Shown here piece by piece: positions 30,829 to 62,765 of a stretch of 64,000 nucleotides of DNA. This DNA is from a virus, in the IMG/VR virus record IMGVR_UViG_3300028364_000014, positions 1-64,000 of that record. One strand, 5' to 3'. Position 1 is the stretch's first letter. Each line of letters opens with the position of its first letter. The notes under the pieces are model-generated. The model saw nothing but the letters and a program-made list of their open reading frames with translations. It was not told where the DNA came from and did no database searches. Both the position numbers and the translations under genes were made by a program.

Positions 30829-33819
30829 TTATTTAATTCTTTTCTTTAATACCGCGTGGCCTAGTCCGTATTCCAATAGTGGGGGTGCTTGAAAACTTGA
30901 AGTGCCTTGAGATCCTAAATAATCAAAACTAGTCCCTACTCTACTACGCACTAAGCCACTTACACTATGAAGAATAGGACCATCTCCCTCTTCGAGTTCC
31001 CTCTCAACCTGTCTTGCTCCATGGGCTCCTAATATAAGTGCAGAATATAAATCCTTATTCATATGCTTAGTAGGAGTATCGAAATGCAATATACCAGTAG
31101 AAGTTTGAGTAACTACTATATTTAATAACTGTGATTTAAGCGTTATTATATTTATATAAGCCCTAGCTAATAAATCGTTAGTAGAATTAGATGGATTATC
31201 TGGAAATAAAAGACTCTTATCCTCAAACATAGCTTTTGTAGTAAAATTGGCATCAGCTATCCAAGTAGGATTAAAATTAACCATATCTAGTATATGTCTT
31301 CCTTCTAAATGTATATGATCTTGGTTTCCTCTATCAATAATAGGTTCGGTTTCTCCGTAACCCTCCTCTAATAAATCACATACTGCCTTTCCACCTCCGC
31401 CTTTATCCATGAATATTCTAATGATATTATATTGATTACAAAGTTGTTGTACTGATCTTGTAAGTCCTTGTGTGGTCTGCTTTTTAAGTTCTATTACATT
31501 AACTATTTTATTAGGTTTACCTATTTCAATAATAACCACACCACAACTGGCGCTTCCCCCCTGATTAGGGTCAATACCCATTATATACTGTTTATTAGGC
31601 GCTCCATTGAACTGTAAAGTAAAATCATTCCCTAAAGTACAATCATCTAATAGGGATGCCTTAAAAAATCCCTCTGAATCTGAAACCATGGCAGCTTCAT
31701 ATTCCATACTATACTCATGTCTAGACATAATACGTTTAGCTTCAGCAATATTATTATTATCCAAGAACCCCTCAGGTAAGTCCCAATAAGGTACTTGCCA
31801 CACTGCATAATCACAATCCTTACCTTGAGCTTCAGCTTCCGCCACCATCTTCCAATGGTCCCTCATACGTCGCCACATATGATTAAATTTATAATACCCT
31901 GAGGAAGTCATTACCATCTTGTTAACTTTTTCCTCAGCAAAATCATCAGCAGCAGCAAGACCAGCATTAATCAAACGAGTCTGTTCCTCTAGTCTACGAA
32001 CTCTTTCCATCGGTGCCAAAGAGGTTGCTCCCATTGGTCTTACTACCATATCCAAAGTTTGATCTGGAACTTGCGCTAACTCATCCACAAGAATTAGATA
32101 GAAACGTGATCCACGAATTTTACTACCATCTCCTAGTGGTAGTCCCTCAATATATGATGGAGTTTTACCAGCAACCGACTTAAATTTTAAATAAGCTGTG
32201 TCTGAACCACGAGTTGGTTTCTTTGCAGAAGCTTCTCTAAGAATTGAAGATTGATCATATAGTTTCTCTACTTCAGCAAATATCATTTTTGAATTGTGAT
32301 TAATAAACCCGTTAGCCCAATAACAGTGTTCATTTTTTACTTCTATATCTATTGTTTCTGAAAAGAAGTAATCAACCTCTTTAATTTTAACAAAGTATAA
32401 CCCTTGTTCATATAATTTTTTGGCTTTATTGTAATTATCCTTTATTAATTTATTTGTAAGACCAATAGCCCTAGCTAAACTTTCTTCTTGATTAAAATGG
32501 TTATCTATATAAGCATTAAGCTTTTCTTTCTTTCTTAAGCATCTAAATCCAACAGTATCATTGAATCTTTTGATAAAAGTTTGTCCTGTAATCCTAACTT
32601 TATAGGCTTCTGCACATTTAGACGGTTTATTTCCTTGCGATAATTGTCTTATACATGCCTTTTTACTTATACCAAAGTTAGACACTATACCTAAATTTAG
32701 TAGTATAGCCTGCACTTCTTTAGCTAGTTGTTTAGAAGAAGTACTAAAGGCAATTTCAGAACCTTTATTTTTTTGCACATAAAAACACCCATCTGTGTCA
32801 TATAAACCCTGTAAACAAGCTATTAAGTTATCTCGTGAAGCTTTTTTTAAAATACTAGGAATCTTTTTATCCAGAGCTGTTGTTTTAGTAAAACCACACT
32901 CTAATAAATACTGGGCTAGTTGCTTACAAAAGTATTGAATTTCCCAAGTATCATTCCTTCTATTCCTTCTATCTATCTTTTCTTCTTTATCTACACAAAA
33001 ATATCTTCTTAGATTATTCTCAAAAGAGTCTAATAAATCCTGGTCTTCACTTACAAAGTCTACACGCTGTTTTCTTTTATTTTTACTAACAGAAACACAG
33101 CCATCACCTAGTAAAAGACCCATCCAATAAGATAAAGAAGGTGTTAATTCTTTAGGTATTAAACAATTTTTAGTTCTCCAATCATGTTCAAATTCAAATT
33201 CAGGCATCGAGTTATCATTACCAAAATAATTAAATCCTGTTTTTATTGCTATATATTCATCTTTTATATCCTGTAAGTCTTTAAATTCAGTATCTAAATC
33301 ATCGTTTAAACACACAACGGCATGATCTATAGTACCAGACAATTCAAATCCTTTTGTAGTTTTTATATACTTACATGCTTTATCTTTATCTGTCCATTTA
33401 CTGACTACTGTATTATGATTAAAATTTGACTGTACTCTTGTTTTTCCTGGAATTACTTTATTATAAAAATCCTCTGTACCTGTATTTAATCCTTCATTTG
33501 TCCAAAACGTAGCAAGTGTGTCTGATTTTATTAACGATTGTCTAAATACTGGGCCAATTAGACCTACCCTATAACCTGGATACAACAAGCAACTTAATGC
33601 AGCTAAAGTACCGAGCATAAAAGTTTTTCCCACGCCACGTCCACAAATAGCTATGACGTAGTTCTTAAACCACATGTCTCTAAAAACCAATCGCTGAATA
33701 GGTGCTAAATCTACCCCTAGGAGCTCATAAGCGGCTGTACAAGGGTGAGCTCTATAAAACTCTATAAGTTCCTTACCTTGTACCAGCAACGCTTCCATGT
33801 TTTGTCTTTTTTTAGCCAT
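30829..33819 (-). CDS. Large terminase subunit with intein
   Basis: The 996-residue precursor encodes a terminase of 581 residues after removal of an intein. The ATPase has Walker A GRGVGKT at residues 60-66 and a Walker B FYLILVDELAQ after the intein. The C-terminal RNase H-type nuclease shows YIMGIDPNQGG. The intein (residues 95-509) splits the ATPase between GPVFRQ and SKMIFAEVEK, inside the conserved segment after the first strands. The enzyme pumps DNA into the prohead through portal and cuts concatemers. Its start overlaps the stop of the small upstream gene. Confidence 0.9.
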   Translation of the reverse strand: MAKKRQNMEALLVQGKELIEFYRAHPCTAAYELLGVDLAPIQRLVFRDMWFKNYVIAICGRGVGKTFMLGTLAALSCLLYPGYRVGLIGPVFRQSLIKSDTLATFWTNEGLNTGTEDFYNKVIPGKTRVQSNFNHNTVVSKWTDKDKACKYIKTTKGFELSGTIDHAVVCLNDDLDTEFKDLQDIKDEYIAIKTGFNYFGNDNSMPEFEFEHDWRTKNCLIPKELTPSLSYWMGLLLGDGCVSVSKNKRKQRVDFVSEDQDLLDSFENNLRRYFCVDKEEKIDRRNRRNDTWEIQYFCKQLAQYLLECGFTKTTALDKKIPSILKKASRDNLIACLQGLYDTDGCFYVQKNKGSEIAFSTSSKQLAKEVQAILLNLGIVSNFGISKKACIRQLSQGNKPSKCAEAYKVRITGQTFIKRFNDTVGFRCLRKKEKLNAYIDNHFNQEESLARAIGLTNKLIKDNYNKAKKLYEQGLYFVKIKEVDYFFSETIDIEVKNEHCYWANGFINHNSKMIFAEVEKLYDQSSILREASAKKPTRGSDTAYLKFKSVAGKTPSYIEGLPLGDGSKIRGSRFYLILVDELAQVPDQTLDMVVRPMGATSLAPMERVRRLEEQTRLINAGLAAADDFAEEKVNKMVMTSSGYYKFNHMWRRMRDHWKMVAEAEAQGKDCDYAVWQVPYWDLPEGFLDNNNIAEAKRIMSRHEYSMEYEAAMVSDSEGFFKASLLDDCTLGNDFTLQFNGAPNKQYIMGIDPNQGGSASCGVVIIEIGKPNKIVNVIELKKQTTQGLTRSVQQLCNQYNIIRIFMDKGGGGKAVCDLLEEGYGETEPIIDRGNQDHIHLEGRHILDMVNFNPTWIADANFTTKAMFEDKSLLFPDNPSNSTNDLLARAYINIITLKSQLLNIVVTQTSTGILHFDTPTKHMNKDLYSALILGAHGARQVERELEEGDGPILHSVSGLVRSRVGTSFDYLGSQGTSSFQAPPLLEYGLGHAVLKKRIK
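32293..33537 (-). other. Intein with LAGLIDADG endonuclease in large terminase
   Basis: The element covers 415 residues. It begins with Ser (SLIKSDTL, where most inteins start with Cys), has a block B GTIDH, two LAGLIDADG helices (YWMGLLLGDG and LQGLYDTDG) and ends with the C-terminal block NGFINHN followed by the extein Ser510. Rejoined exteins give GPVFRQ-SKMIFAEVEK, a normal terminase segment. It should splice out and the nested endonuclease should home into intein-free terminase genes. Confidence 0.9.
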
Positions 33820-48192: not shown

Positions 48193-49533
48193 TTACCCTA
48201 TTGTTTTATCTTGTAGTAAATCAGCTATTTCTAATATATCACTTCTATATGAGTTCTGTAATTCAACATAAGCTATAGATCTGTGTGGTAGAACTCTAAG
48301 TAATTTTAATAGACCTGATTCTGATGGCTTAACTACGTTATATGTTTGTTTTAAATCACCAAGTAGTATCAACCTACCAGAAGCCGATGGACGACTTAGA
48401 ATCATGCTCATATAGTCTACAGTAATAAGTTGAACTTCATCTACGATTAGTGTGTCGTTATCTAGAAGAGATAGTCCTTGAATTGAATTTAAAGATATAG
48501 GCTCAAACTTTTCTTTAAAAATTATATCTTTAACGTAATCATAGCGTTTCTTTATGTCTTGACCTCTAGTATTTGAATAGATATAATATAGAGCGCTCAT
48601 AAAACCAGCAAGCCAGTCTTGCATTTTATCCATTTTATCCCCAGGAAGAAATCCCAACTCATACTTAGAATTAATTCCTATAGGTGCTCTCGACACAAAC
48701 ACTTTTTTATCTCGATCTTTAGCTAATGCCGCTGCTGAAGCCAGCAAAGTCTTACCAGAGCCCCATCTGCCGGTGATTAAGCAATGAGGGGCTTCTTTGA
48801 GTGCAAATATAGCGCATACTTGATAAGCATCTCTTGCTTTTACAGTAGTTTGTTCTACTTTTATTTCCCTATATTCAGGATTATCATCTATTTTAATAAA
48901 TACTTTTTTTATGGGATTATGTGCATATATAATCGTGTTAGGGGTAGGATTTTTAATAAATACAAAAAACCAGGAGTTTTCATCTAATGATTTTTCACTG
49001 GATCTTTCAAATAAATCAAATGTGTTTGAATAATCATTACCGTTTGGGTCATCACTAATGTATCTCCCATAACCAAATACACCTTCTTCACAATTCCAAT
49101 AAAGAGCGTCTTGTTCAATGTAAACATAAGGATTAAATAAATTATTTAACACAACATCAAAAAGCTTTACCATCACTCCTTGAGATTCAGCGATTATTGA
49201 CATTGACATATCTTTTGTAGCCAGTACTGCTCCGTGTTTTTTTGCGGAAGCTATAATAGCTTGATCATTATTGAACGTGCCATTAAACGCCTCAGTGTCA
49301 AATTCTATCTTATCTGGAAATTCTTTTTTAAAGTCTATAATAGCTCTTATAGCCTCTCTCGCACTATAAGAAGTGTCTGGTTTAAATTTATGTTTATCTA
49401 GTTCTTGTAATACAGTAATAGGCAGAATTAACTTTATATATTCTTTTGAAAGTTTAAATAAGATTTTTGAGTCATCAAGTAATAAGTTAGTATCAATAAC
49501 TACTTTAGTGTTGTTTTTTATTGACTTAAGCAT
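48193..49533 (-). CDS. phoH: PIN-PhoH fusion protein
   Basis: A 446-residue protein with an N-terminal PIN nuclease domain (TKVVIDTNLLLDDSKILF, later NNDQAIIASAKKHGAVLATK) and a C-terminal PhoH ATPase (Walker A GRWGSGKTLLAS, Walker B DNDTLIVDEVQLI, GRLILLGDLKQTYNV). Family members are thought to unwind and cleave RNA. PhoH genes are common in phages; the full PIN-PhoH form is less so. It lies just downstream of the IscB insertion. Confidence 0.88.
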   Translation of the reverse strand: MLKSIKNNTKVVIDTNLLLDDSKILFKLSKEYIKLILPITVLQELDKHKFKPDTSYSAREAIRAIIDFKKEFPDKIEFDTEAFNGTFNNDQAIIASAKKHGAVLATKDMSMSIIAESQGVMVKLFDVVLNNLFNPYVYIEQDALYWNCEEGVFGYGRYISDDPNGNDYSNTFDLFERSSEKSLDENSWFFVFIKNPTPNTIIYAHNPIKKVFIKIDDNPEYREIKVEQTTVKARDAYQVCAIFALKEAPHCLITGRWGSGKTLLASAAALAKDRDKKVFVSRAPIGINSKYELGFLPGDKMDKMQDWLAGFMSALYYIYSNTRGQDIKKRYDYVKDIIFKEKFEPISLNSIQGLSLLDNDTLIVDEVQLITVDYMSMILSRPSASGRLILLGDLKQTYNVVKPSESGLLKLLRVLPHRSIAYVELQNSYRSDILEIADLLQDKTIG

Positions 49534-49925
49534 AAATAAGTCTCCTTATTGTGTATTGGGATTTATTTTGAAAAAACATAGGTTAGTTAAATACACTAAC
49601 ACTTTTTATGAACAAAACTGGGAAGGGGTTTTATAAAATCATTGGCATACTCTAGCTCCTAGTAAATATATATTGTAAGAAGGTAAGAGGCTAACCTCCT
49701 TAATAATAAGAAGGTTAGTTAAAGCTAGATTATAGAGAGATGTATTAATAATTTCATCGATATTACAGTGGGGGACACTGTTGAAGTTTGTTGTTAGTAT
49801 TATGGCTACAGATTTTTTTATCAGTTCGGCCTTTAGGCCGTAAAACCCAATGCTTTAGCTTTGGGATATAAGCCTTTGCTTTAGCAGTTTTTGTTAGATA
49901 TGATTCATTTACCGCAACAAGGATA
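49534..49925. other. Non-coding region at the downstream end of the IscB element
   Basis: No gene is seen. It holds hairpins CGGCC-TTTA-GGCCG-type (49827-49840) and CCCAA-TGCTTTAGCT-TTGGG (49846-49865), which resemble the CCCAAG hairpin on the far side of IscB, and a separate stem CTAACCT...AGGTTAG (49691-49718) that could stop transcription from either side. The last may terminate messages near PhoH. Confidence 0.5.
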
Positions 49926-51413
49926 TTAGTAAGTCACCAAGCCGCAATTGTTTGTCAATTTACGACAACGTTTAATGCCAAAAGTATCTAATTTTTTTGG
50001 ATTAAGAATGTTCTCAAAAGTAATAACCTCACCTTTGTTTTGCACGCCTTTACAAACTTGTATCATTGATTCTACGTTGACAACATCACCTTTTCGGATC
50101 TTGTAGTCAGTGATTAAACTTCTCATTACTTTTTTTCCTGGGATTGCAACTATAACTGTTGAGTTAAGCTTCCCCTCAACCATGAGAGATTGTTTTAATT
50201 CGGTAAGACTCTTTTTCTTAGGGTCTTGTCCTGCCCGTCGTTTACGATTCCAGGCTACTATCTTTTTCTTTTTTTCCGGTATTGAGTCAAAAATCATATA
50301 TCTACGATCCGTAGATCTTAACGTAAATGACCGGGTGTGCCTAGGAAATTGTCTCATATTCAACTCAGAATTATAATCTTTCCAAGAGTAATCTTGTAAA
50401 TCCTGATTTCCTAAACTGTCGTTGAATGCAATGAGGCTTGCATCACTGGCATGAGATTTAATAATATTGTCTCGATTCCTAACGCCACTCGTAATATATC
50501 CGTAAGTGTCTTGAATTGGACATTTGTCTTCAAATTCATTCCAGATCGTTTTCATGACTGAATTTAAAACTCCAGCATCACGGTATCCGTTTACAGAAGT
50601 AGATTCCTTTGGACATTTTAATCCATTTTTGTGAACTTTGTTATGACAATTTTCACACAGCAATATTAAATTTTCAGGTCGATCTGAACCACCATTACTC
50701 TTCCAAGTGATATGATGAACTTCGTTTCTAATTTTACCAACATCTTTTTTACAGATTTGACATTGGTAATTGTCTCTATTCCTTACATAACTTTTTACGT
50801 TTTCAAAACCAAATTGTAATCCTTTTTGATACCAAAAAGATTGGACCTTTGGAGTAATCATCTTGTGGATATCAAATTTATTATACTCTAAATGAATTTT
50901 AACTTGTTCAATTGGAACCAACTTTAATAACTTTGCCAATACATTTCTATGCGATTGGATCAAATGAAGATGAGTAACTTGAAACTTATGTTTACTTCGA
51001 TTTTTCCAAATAGGGTGCTTGAACTTAGCATTTCCAGCCCCATACTTTTTTTTGATACCTTTTCGAGCCAGATATCTTCGACTGCGGCGATACATTCTTT
51101 TGGCATCAAGCCCTTCTTTGATCTTTGCTGTGCGTAGGTATACCTCTCCGTTAATAAGTTTAGTAATAACATCCCTTTGGATTTTAAATACTGCAAACCC
51201 AATGTTCGCATATCCAGGATCAATACCTATTCTAAACTCACAATTAATTGTTTCACTTTTATAAAATACTTTTGTTAATAATTGAACAATAATTACGTCT
51301 TTGTTTAATCGTTTTATAACTTTAGCTTTCTTGTTTCGAATCAACCTTCCCACCATATCGTGTTTTTTGGTAGGGTGGCCGATATTGTTTCTTGCGTCTA
51401 CAATGTAAATCAT
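49926..51413 (-). CDS. iscB: IscB RNA-guided nuclease
   Basis: A 495-residue protein with all IscB parts: an N-terminal PLMP-type domain (YIVDARNNIGHPTKKHDMVG), RuvC-I GIDPGYANIGFAVF (D65), an Arg-rich bridge helix (KRMYRRSRRYLARKGIKKKY), RuvC-II VKIHLEYNKFD (E176), an HNH domain (YQCQICKKDVG, VHHITWKSNGGSDRPENL, CENCHNKVH), and RuvC-III KSHASDASLIAF (H321, D324). All catalytic residues are present, so it should be active. IscB is the ancestor-like relative of Cas9. It lies alone; no IS605-type TnpA transposase gene is visible. Confidence 0.93.
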   Translation of the reverse strand: MIYIVDARNNIGHPTKKHDMVGRLIRNKKAKVIKRLNKDVIIVQLLTKVFYKSETINCEFRIGIDPGYANIGFAVFKIQRDVITKLINGEVYLRTAKIKEGLDAKRMYRRSRRYLARKGIKKKYGAGNAKFKHPIWKNRSKHKFQVTHLHLIQSHRNVLAKLLKLVPIEQVKIHLEYNKFDIHKMITPKVQSFWYQKGLQFGFENVKSYVRNRDNYQCQICKKDVGKIRNEVHHITWKSNGGSDRPENLILLCENCHNKVHKNGLKCPKESTSVNGYRDAGVLNSVMKTIWNEFEDKCPIQDTYGYITSGVRNRDNIIKSHASDASLIAFNDSLGNQDLQDYSWKDYNSELNMRQFPRHTRSFTLRSTDRRYMIFDSIPEKKKKIVAWNRKRRAGQDPKKKSLTELKQSLMVEGKLNSTVIVAIPGKKVMRSLITDYKIRKGDVVNVESMIQVCKGVQNKGEVITFENILNPKKLDTFGIKRCRKLTNNCGLVTY

Positions 51414-51625
51414 CTTTTCCCCTCTTAATAAATACCCATTGATCGGGCAAACTAAGAATAGTTCGGTTCGTCTCCCCCGACTTAATCAAAAGTAATACTG
51501 ATCTTCGTTACCTACTAATCAGCAATGAGGACTTGTAATGCTCCGCTTACCTCCATTGCTACGGACTGGGAGTGGCATCCGTAGGTGAACTCTCGATTAA
51601 ACGTCTGTTCAATCCTGAATTAAAT
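51414..51625 (-). ncRNA. Candidate omega-RNA (HEARO) upstream of iscB
   Basis: The 200 bases before iscB have no gene and strong secondary structure on the minus strand: CTACGGA...TCCGTAG, and GCAATGG-AGG...CCTCATTGC, followed by GGGGGAGACGAACC. IscB guide RNAs are encoded right here, upstream of and reading into the nuclease gene, with the guide at the 5' end. The exact ends are not determined. Confidence 0.72.
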
Positions 51626-51841
51626 CAGCTTGCTGTTGATTGCAAGCCCAAGTCCTTTAGGCTTGGGTAATTGACTATTATTTTGTAAGTATGTGTTAAT
51701 GATGGTTGATTGGTCATCAGAAGATAGGTTATTAAATAATTCGTTACACATAATTAAGCAATCTGTTGGTGACACATCAATTGTTAAATTAAACTTTGCT
51801 CCGCTTGTTTCTAAGGTAGTTTCAAAAAATTTCTTACTCAT
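51620..51841 (-). CDS. Small protein, possibly truncated by the IscB element
   Basis: A 73-residue protein. The first 58 residues look like a normal small phage protein (begins MSKKFFETTLETSGAKFNLT). The last 15 (KPKGLGLAINSKLI) are read from hairpin-forming DNA (CCCAAG...CTTGGG at 51647-51667 and GCTTGC...GCAAGC at 51631-51650) that probably belongs to the IscB element end. The original C-terminus may have been lost. Confidence 0.5.
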   Translation of the reverse strand: MSKKFFETTLETSGAKFNLTIDVSPTDCLIMCNELFNNLSSDDQSTIINTYLQNNSQLPKPKGLGLAINSKLI

Positions 51842-55731: not shown

Positions 55732-56661
55732 TTAACTTCCAAAAATATTACGTGATTTAATTAGGGTATTATCTCCAGTCAGTTGTGGTTCTTGAGTATA
55801 TCCATTAATATTTAAAGTAGCTGTAATATCTTCATGTATATTAATCCAATTTTTATTAGAATTACTCTTAATTGTGTTAATTAGGTACGAAGTCATGGCA
55901 CCTTGCCACTTACCTTCTATATACGCATCAGCCGATGTTTGATTGTCTTTACAACCTGATAGAAGTACATACTCTTGATAGCTTTTAATTTCTTTATTAA
56001 GTCTATTTATAGGAGTATCCACATTATTTCGTATCTGAATATCAATCGGGGGACTTATGAATCTATCCTCCTGTTTTATAGACCTAGCCATTGAACCACT
56101 ATGACATGAATCACAAATGAATGTTAAAAACACTCCATTGGCTTTTTTATTGAAATTATGTCGAATAATGTCATCTGTTAATGGGTCATCCCAATTTAAA
56201 TCCGTAGGGCAAAGTATTTCATCTAAATGATCATTAAGTTCATCTCCATCACGATCTCTCACTTGAGACCCGTGCCCTGAAAAATGAAGAACCAATTCAT
56301 CACCTGGAACAGTGTGACTTAATAACCAGTCTATTCTACTTAAAATGTTCTTTTTAGTAGCTCTTTTGTCTACTAGTACTCTAACATTGTCTGATGGAAA
56401 CTTATAGATATTAACTAATACATCGTGCATAGCAACAGCGTCATTTACACAGCCTTTGAGATCTGAGTTAAGGCTTGAATCATAGATATTAATACCTATA
56501 ATAACGGCGAACTTAGATGGTTCCCTCTTAGCAGTAATACCCTCTTCTATGGTCTCATCTATAGTGGCGTAAATAGGGTTATTCTTTATCTCCCCTGTTG
56601 TTTCTGGAGTTTTTAATACTGTAGTAATCCAACCCCAAAAGCTTGTTAAAAAGTTTGTCAT
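55732..56661 (-). CDS. Metacaspase-like cysteine protease
   Basis: A 309-residue C14-family protein. Residues about 50-200 form a caspase-like p20 domain: FAVIIGINIYDSS at the first strand, LKGCVNDAVAMHDVLV, catalytic H130 in LHFSGHGSQ, and catalytic C186 in ICDSCHSGS. Later DNQTSADAYIEGKWQGAMTS matches the p10-like part. The short N-terminal stretch is hydrophobic and could touch a membrane. In bacteria such proteases serve in defence or cell death; in a phage it may process host or viral proteins or counter a defence system. Its stop lies close to the Pth2 promoter. Confidence 0.88.
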   Translation of the reverse strand: MTNFLTSFWGWITTVLKTPETTGEIKNNPIYATIDETIEEGITAKREPSKFAVIIGINIYDSSLNSDLKGCVNDAVAMHDVLVNIYKFPSDNVRVLVDKRATKKNILSRIDWLLSHTVPGDELVLHFSGHGSQVRDRDGDELNDHLDEILCPTDLNWDDPLTDDIIRHNFNKKANGVFLTFICDSCHSGSMARSIKQEDRFISPPIDIQIRNNVDTPINRLNKEIKSYQEYVLLSGCKDNQTSADAYIEGKWQGAMTSYLINTIKSNSNKNWINIHEDITATLNINGYTQEPQLTGDNTLIKSRNIFGS

Positions 56662-59662: not shown

Positions 59663-59709
59663 ATTTTAACTCTTTCGTCTTGGGCAGGACGTTAACTTAC
59701 CCATCACTC

Positions 59710-59775
59710 GTCTGAGCGAGTATAAACAGTCCTTAGGCTCAGAGCGTCGTCCCACTTCGGTGGGGCGGGTGGCAA
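59710..59775 (+). ncRNA. Structured RNA element, copy 1
   Basis: Stem CTGAGC/GCTCAG is followed by AGCGTC and a seven-pair hairpin GTCCCAC-TTCG-GTGGGGC, then GGGTGGCAA. Copy 2 at 62702 keeps both stems while changing bases in them. It lies 33 bases before an early gene and is likely a leader element that acts on translation or transcription. Confidence 0.7.
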
Positions 59776-62691: not shown

Positions 62692-62701
62692 TCAATTATC
62701 T

Positions 62702-62765
62702 GTTTGAGCAGGTACACAGGCCTTAAGCTCAAAGCGTCGCCTCACTTCGGTGGGGCGGGTGGCAA
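62702..62765 (+). ncRNA. Structured RNA element, copy 2
   Basis: Stem TTGAGC/GCTCAA, then AGCGTC and hairpin GCCTCAC-TTCG-GTGGGGC followed by GGGTGGCAA. Compared with copy 1, one pair changes from C-G to T-A, and two hairpin pairs swap between G-U and G-C. It lies 49 bases before the zinc-protein gene. Confidence 0.7.

What the first reader, a model, noticed from the sequence alone, without database searches (positions are those of the whole stretch)
49926..51625. Apparently intact IscB with a structured upstream RNA in a phage genome
All RuvC and HNH residues are present (D65, E176, HNH with HH at 233-234, H321/D324). The 200 bases upstream form stems as expected for omega-RNA. In a phage full of homing enzymes it may act as an RNA-guided homing nuclease or as a weapon against rival phages.
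Basis: partly seen in the sequence, partly recalled or inferred. Interest (0 to 1): 0.72.

Follow-up and report, generated by a model that had tools for sequence, protein, structure and literature searches.

The report
Mobile IscB element in a phage
A large phage carries two copies of a small mobile element that encodes an intact-looking IscB (the RNA-guided DNA-cutting enzyme ancestral to Cas9) with its guide RNA, and the enzyme most likely cuts copies of the insertion site that lack the element; this is a real but already known kind of system.

Summary
The ORF at 49926-51413(-) is IscB: NCBIfam equivalog NF040563 above cut-off, best PDB matches all IscB, and D65, E176, H233/H234, H321 and D324 conserved. 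The upstream RNA is a divergent HEARO/omega-RNA (46.5 bits, below gathering, E=2e-9 over the genome).

New findings. The 237.9-kb phage record holds a second copy (B, 84% aa). Between A and B, 62% of synonymous sites differ (dN/dS 0.07), yet the omega-RNA core is 97% identical. With a 47%-identical bacterial-MAG relative, 13 RNA pairs show compensatory changes. A, B and an iscB-less mini-element share end hairpins followed by ATAAAAA; ATAAA is OrufIscB's best motif. Three relatives have the host gene uninterrupted. So A is a mobile ISC/IS200-605-like element without its own TnpA. Best reading: IscB, guided by the flanking sequence, cuts element-free alleles (retention/homing). No evidence supports a weapon. 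IscB plus HEARO is common in virus contigs (17 of 20 checked). In Staphylococcus Silviavirus the inserted IscB is followed by a duplicated, synonymously recoded target, suggestive of homing. No exact empty target for A or B was found.

The parts
49926..51413 (-). iscB (copy A), 495 aa: RRXRR/PLMP-type N-terminus, RuvC-I D65, RuvC-II E176, HNH H233/H234, RuvC-III H321/D324, HNH zinc cysteines C218/C221/C253/C256
51430..51675 (-). omega-RNA scaffold (divergent HEARO, RF02033; Rfam match 51492-51675, conserved sequence continues to about 51430)
51676..51691 (-). predicted 16-nt guide TACTTACAAAATAATA, taken from the 3' part of the 73-aa gene; its 3' edge is ambiguous by 3 nt (ATA is repeated at the right end)
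   Evidence: 16-nt length by analogy with OgeuIscB (PMC13180657)
51646..51667 (-). left-end hairpin CCCAAGCCTAAAGGACTTGGG (CCCAAACCTAAAGGATTTGGG in copy B: one compensatory pair change)
49827..49865 (-). right-end hairpins CCCAAAGCTAAAGCATTGGG and CGGCCTAAAGGCCG, shared with copy B and, in part, mini-element C
49817..49821 (-). TAM-like ATAAA directly 3' of the right end (ATAAAAA in A, B and C; CTAAAA in L059)
   Evidence: ATAAA as TAM of OrufIscB from PMC13180657
49822..51678 (-). whole mobile element A (ends uncertain by 3 nt)
   Evidence: homology of copies A and B starts and stops here:
51620..51841 (-). 73-aa host gene interrupted near its 3' end; last codons (SQLPKPKGLGLAINSKLI*) come from the element; uninterrupted in three relatives

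Best explanation
Copy A is an ISC-type (IS200/IS605-like) mobile element that encodes only IscB and its omega-RNA and has inserted near the 3' end of a small phage gene, next to an ATAAA motif. Transcription through the host gene would produce an RNA whose 5' end is the flanking phage sequence (guide) and whose body is the HEARO scaffold. IscB bound to this RNA would cut the same site in a DNA copy that lacks the element (after excision, or in a co-infecting sibling), and repair from the element-bearing copy restores or spreads the element. Shown here: protein family and catalytic residues, conserved and compensated RNA structure, element boundaries, multiple copies, insertion relative to uninterrupted relatives, and the TAM-like motif. 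Inferred: transcription, RNP formation, cleavage, repair, and a transposase acting in trans.
For: IscB equivalog above cut-off with all catalytic residues. HEARO match. Copies A and B: dS 1.32, dN/dS 0.069, omega-RNA core 97.2% identical against 80.8% in the CDS. 13 of 64 pairs with compensatory double changes among A, B and L059. A/B homology starts within 3 nt of the HEARO start and ends at ATAAAAA. Mini-element C carries both ends without iscB. The host gene is uninterrupted in L024, L025 and L026. L059 has the same layout with CTAAAA at its right end. ATAAA is the best TAM of OrufIscB (PMC13180657). TnpB of the same transposon superfamily acts as a gene drive in plasmids (PMC11870625).
Against: No Y1 transposase (PF01797) in the 238-kb record, so mobility must come from outside or be lost. 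No relative has an empty site matching the guide: the nearest homologues are only about 80-84% identical in the adjacent protein. HEARO scores are below the Rfam gathering cut-off. No expression data. A and B are strongly diverged and sit at unrelated sites, so they give no direct evidence of a recent move. The end motif ATAAAAA rests on three copies in one genome plus one relative.
Confidence: 0.75

Rival explanations
1. The element no longer moves; IscB-A is a stationary RNA-guided homing or marker-exclusion nuclease that spreads only by cutting element-free alleles in mixed infections, like free-standing phage homing enzymes.
For: No TnpA in the record. The phage carries many HNH/LAGLIDADG/GIY-like ORFs. 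In Silviavirus an IscB insert is followed by a duplicated target recoded synonymously (AAT AGT AAA to AAT TCG AAG in VL10), as expected for immunity to its own cut.
Against: Two copies at unrelated sites and an iscB-less mini-element with the same ends point to transposition. No duplicated or recoded target flanks A or B.
Confidence: 0.2
2. IscB-A is a weapon used against rival phages or host DNA through guides matching them.
For: Purifying selection on protein and RNA is compatible with a useful function.
Against: The guide is simply the flanking phage sequence. No match in other viruses for the guide-bearing 20-mer or for B's flank. The best guide-A hit with a TAM in a relative has 2 mismatches, in an AT-rich neighbouring gene, and is judged a chance match.
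Confidence: 0.04
3. Decayed or inactive IscB remnant.
For: Below-gathering HEARO score; C-terminal third poorly modelled (pLDDT below 50 for 359-403 and 415-451).
Against: Open frame, all catalytic residues, dN/dS 0.069 at dS 1.32, 97% identical RNA core.
Confidence: 0.03

Closest known systems
IscB/omega-RNA (OMEGA) nucleases, e.g. OgeuIscB and OrufIscB
   Same: Domain order, catalytic residues, HEARO-type RNA directly 5' of the ORF, ATAAA-type motif on the right flank
   Different: Only distantly alike in sequence (structure-aligned identity 19-26%); divergent HEARO; C-terminal region not alignable by sequence beyond about residue 411
HEARO RNA (Rfam RF02033)
   Same: P1, left-end hairpin with UAAAG loop, central CACC...GGAUGC...CCAGUCC helix
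   Different: 46.5 bits, below the gathering score of 83; shorter variable arm
ISC / IS200-IS605 transposons
   Same: Left and right hairpins, guide from the left flank, fixed motif at the right flank, iscB-less mini-element
   Different: No TnpA in the record; resident in a phage genome
IscB/HEARO insertions in Staphylococcus Silviavirus phages (HEARO noted in PMC13346280)
   Same: Phage-borne IscB with HEARO at the insertion boundary
   Different: About 22% identical IscB; target duplicated and recoded on the right side; weaker HEARO score (32.5 bits)

Membership tests
IscB RNA-guided nuclease | Curated IscB family score | tested here: met
   NF040563 195.2 bits, cut-off 175; PHROG 119 5e-28
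IscB RNA-guided nuclease | RuvC D/E/H-D and HNH catalytic residues | tested here: met
   D65, E176, H233/H234, H321, D324 conserved in 44 sequences and in alignment to OgeuIscB
IscB RNA-guided nuclease | IscB fold | tested here: met
   AlphaFold2 model (mean pLDDT 67.6); Foldseek top hits 8csz, 9liq, 9nvu, all IscB, E to 2.9e-19, though TM-scores are low, about 0.35
IscB RNA-guided nuclease | RNA-guided cleavage | not testable with these tools
   needs biochemistry
HEARO RNA (RF02033) | Score at or above gathering threshold | tested here: not met
   46.5 and 45.1 bits against 83; hence called HEARO-like and divergent
HEARO RNA (RF02033) | Conserved structure with covariation | tested here: met
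   13 of 64 pairs compensated among three sequences
ISC / IS200-IS605 element | Conserved terminal hairpins, several copies | tested here: met
   copies A, B and mini-element C
ISC / IS200-IS605 element | Y1 transposase TnpA (autonomous elements) | tested here: not met
   PF01797 absent from G000; positive in control genomes. Many IscB loci lack TnpA (PMC9755519), so A is called ISC-like and non-autonomous, not an autonomous ISC transposon
ISC / IS200-IS605 element | Motif at the right flank (TAM) | tested here: met
   ATAAAAA in A, B, C; CTAAAA in L059
RNA-guided homing element | Empty allele carries guide sequence plus TAM | tested here: inconclusive
   Relatives have the gene uninterrupted but too diverged; no exact flank in other viral contigs

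The most novel reading that the evidence does not exclude
Phage IscBs, including this one, act as reprogrammable RNA-guided homing nucleases: on insertion the flank becomes the guide, element-free alleles are cut in mixed infections, and self-immunity comes from separating the target from its TAM or from recoding the target, as the Silviavirus junctions suggest.
Probability: 0.4. Interest if true: 0.7.

Novelty: new member of a known kind. Interest (0 to 1): 0.45.

Why it matters
It shows a complete IscB element, in two diverged but selectively maintained copies plus a mini-element, living inside one large phage genome with no transposase of its own. Phages with many genome copies per cell are a natural setting for an RNA-guided gene drive, as already shown for TnpB on plasmids (PMC11870625), and the Staphylococcus phage junctions found on the way make that idea directly testable in cultivable phages.

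Tried and rejected
B's host gene has no homologue in viral contigs or in the four related records, so no empty site for B. Exact flank search for A finds only a near-identical contig (same virus, 99.8%), for B nothing. Right-end motif search finds only the same virus. The 2-mismatch guide-A hit in L024 followed by ATAAA lies in another gene and is judged chance in AT-rich DNA. Promoter scan no better than shuffles. Altae-Tran 2021 and Schuler 2022 are not in the library, so IscB background beyond PMC13180657 and PMC9755519 rests on my own knowledge. Rejected: weapon; decayed remnant.

Full report
What is there. The finding lies in a 237,910-base IMG/VR virus record of which the window is bases 1-64000. 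The record is a tailed-phage genome: terminase large subunit with a homing-type insertion, portal and major head protein. The ORF at 49926-51413(-) is a 495-aa IscB: RRXRR and HNH domains, the NCBIfam equivalog 'RNA-guided endonuclease IscB' above its cut-off, and IscB structures as the best PDB matches by sequence and by fold (model confidence moderate, mean pLDDT 67.6, C-terminal third poor).

The RNA. Rfam's HEARO model matches 51492-51675(-) with 46.5 bits, under the gathering score of 83 but with E=8e-8 in a 2.2-kb scan and 2e-9 over the genome. The strand folds better than all 200 shuffles (z -2.96); copy B is weaker (z -1.87). An alignment of A, B and a relative (L059) gives 64 consensus pairs, 13 with changes on both sides that keep the pair, including the central helix and the closing P1 helix. 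The scaffold therefore starts at about 51675, inside the 3' end of the 73-aa ORF 51620-51841, and the predicted guide is 51676-51691.

A second copy and selection. The same record has a full second copy B at 90011-91498(+), 84% identical in protein. The DNA homology runs from 51678 to 49815 in A. Between A and B, dS is 1.32 and dN 0.091 (ratio 0.069), the CDS is 80.8% identical, but the omega-RNA core is 97.2% and the 3' end region 93.7% identical. So protein, RNA and element ends all appear to be held by selection, which a decayed remnant would not show.

Element ends. A third site, about 143,530-143,650(-), has the left and right hairpins without iscB, in a tRNA cluster. In A, B and C the right hairpin is followed by ATAAAAA. 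The relative L059 in a Bacteroidetes MAG contig (47% identical IscB, HEARO 55 bits) has CTAAAA there. OrufIscB uses NTAAA, best ATAAA, as its TAM (PMC13180657). No Y1 transposase is found in the record, with the control genomes positive. IscB loci without TnpA are usual (PMC9755519).

Insertion. Three related contigs have the genes in the same order (163-aa gene, short gene, PhoH) with the short gene uninterrupted and no iscB at the site. Across these related records only HNH-domain matches are found, no other IscB. In A and B the element supplies a new C-terminal tail (SQLPKPKG[LF]GLA[IV]N[SR]KLI*) in frame with the host gene. The relatives are too diverged to test the guide against an empty target, and neither flank occurs in other viruses of the collection.

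Context. It is also in phage records of Staphylococcus, Nodularia, Microcoleus and Clostridioides and in a 484-kb metagenomic phage. HEARO in Silviavirus was reported before (PMC13346280). In Silviavirus the insertion boundary coincides with the HEARO start (1815/1816 in VL10; 3447/3448 in MRSA28). The empty phages read CATGACAAATAGTAAAAAAAAAGGTG. The occupied ones keep ATGACAAATAGTAAAA on the left and have CTGACAAATTCGAAGAAAAAAGGTG (VL10) on the right, that is, the same amino acids TNSKKKG with recoded codons. That is what a homing insert immune to its own guide would look like, but the poly-A stretch leaves the exact guide edge open and nothing was tested at the bench.

Mechanism. The best-supported account is an ISC-like, non-autonomous element whose IscB, guided by the sequence flanking the insertion, cuts element-free copies, so that repair keeps or spreads the element. 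TnpB of the same transposon superfamily has been shown to act as a gene drive on plasmids (PMC11870625). The weapon hypothesis has no support. Steps not shown: transcription, RNP assembly, cleavage, repair, source of transposase.

Verdict. Observation confirmed with corrected coordinates; interpretation partly supported; a new member of a known kind, with the multi-copy phage setting and the Silviavirus recoding as the interesting parts.

Noticed in passing
window 59706-59774(+) and 62698-62764(+): Two Pistol self-cleaving ribozymes above the Rfam gathering score (71.3 and 49.0 bits), about 3 kb apart in the same phage.
   Followed up: no
L143:1809-3014(-), about 156,608-157,813 of the 237.9-kb record: An intact-looking 401-aa TnpB beside a cyclopropane-fatty-acid-synthase-like ORF, so the phage has both IscB and TnpB.
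   Followed up: partly
L019, about 143,530-143,650 of the record, minus strand: Mini-element with the left and right hairpins of the IscB element but no iscB, in a tRNA cluster.
   Followed up: yes
L044, L053 (occupied) against L052, L054, L055 (empty): Silviavirus IscB insertion with duplicated, synonymously recoded target on the right side (S AGT to TCG, in VL10 also K AAA to AAG): suggests RNA-guided homing in cultivable phages.
   Followed up: partly
L049 against L056-L058: Staphylococcus phage Golestan101-M has an IscB inserted immediately upstream of a PhoH-like gene; window copy A also lies just upstream of a PIN-PhoH gene (48193-49533). Probably coincidence.
   Followed up: no
window 55732-56661(-): Caspase-like (C14-type) ORF with GHGSQ and CDSCHSGS motifs in a phage genome; judged by eye from the translation only.
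   Followed up: no
window 30829-33819(-): Terminase large subunit interrupted by a homing-endonuclease-bearing insertion read in frame, probably an intein.
   Followed up: no
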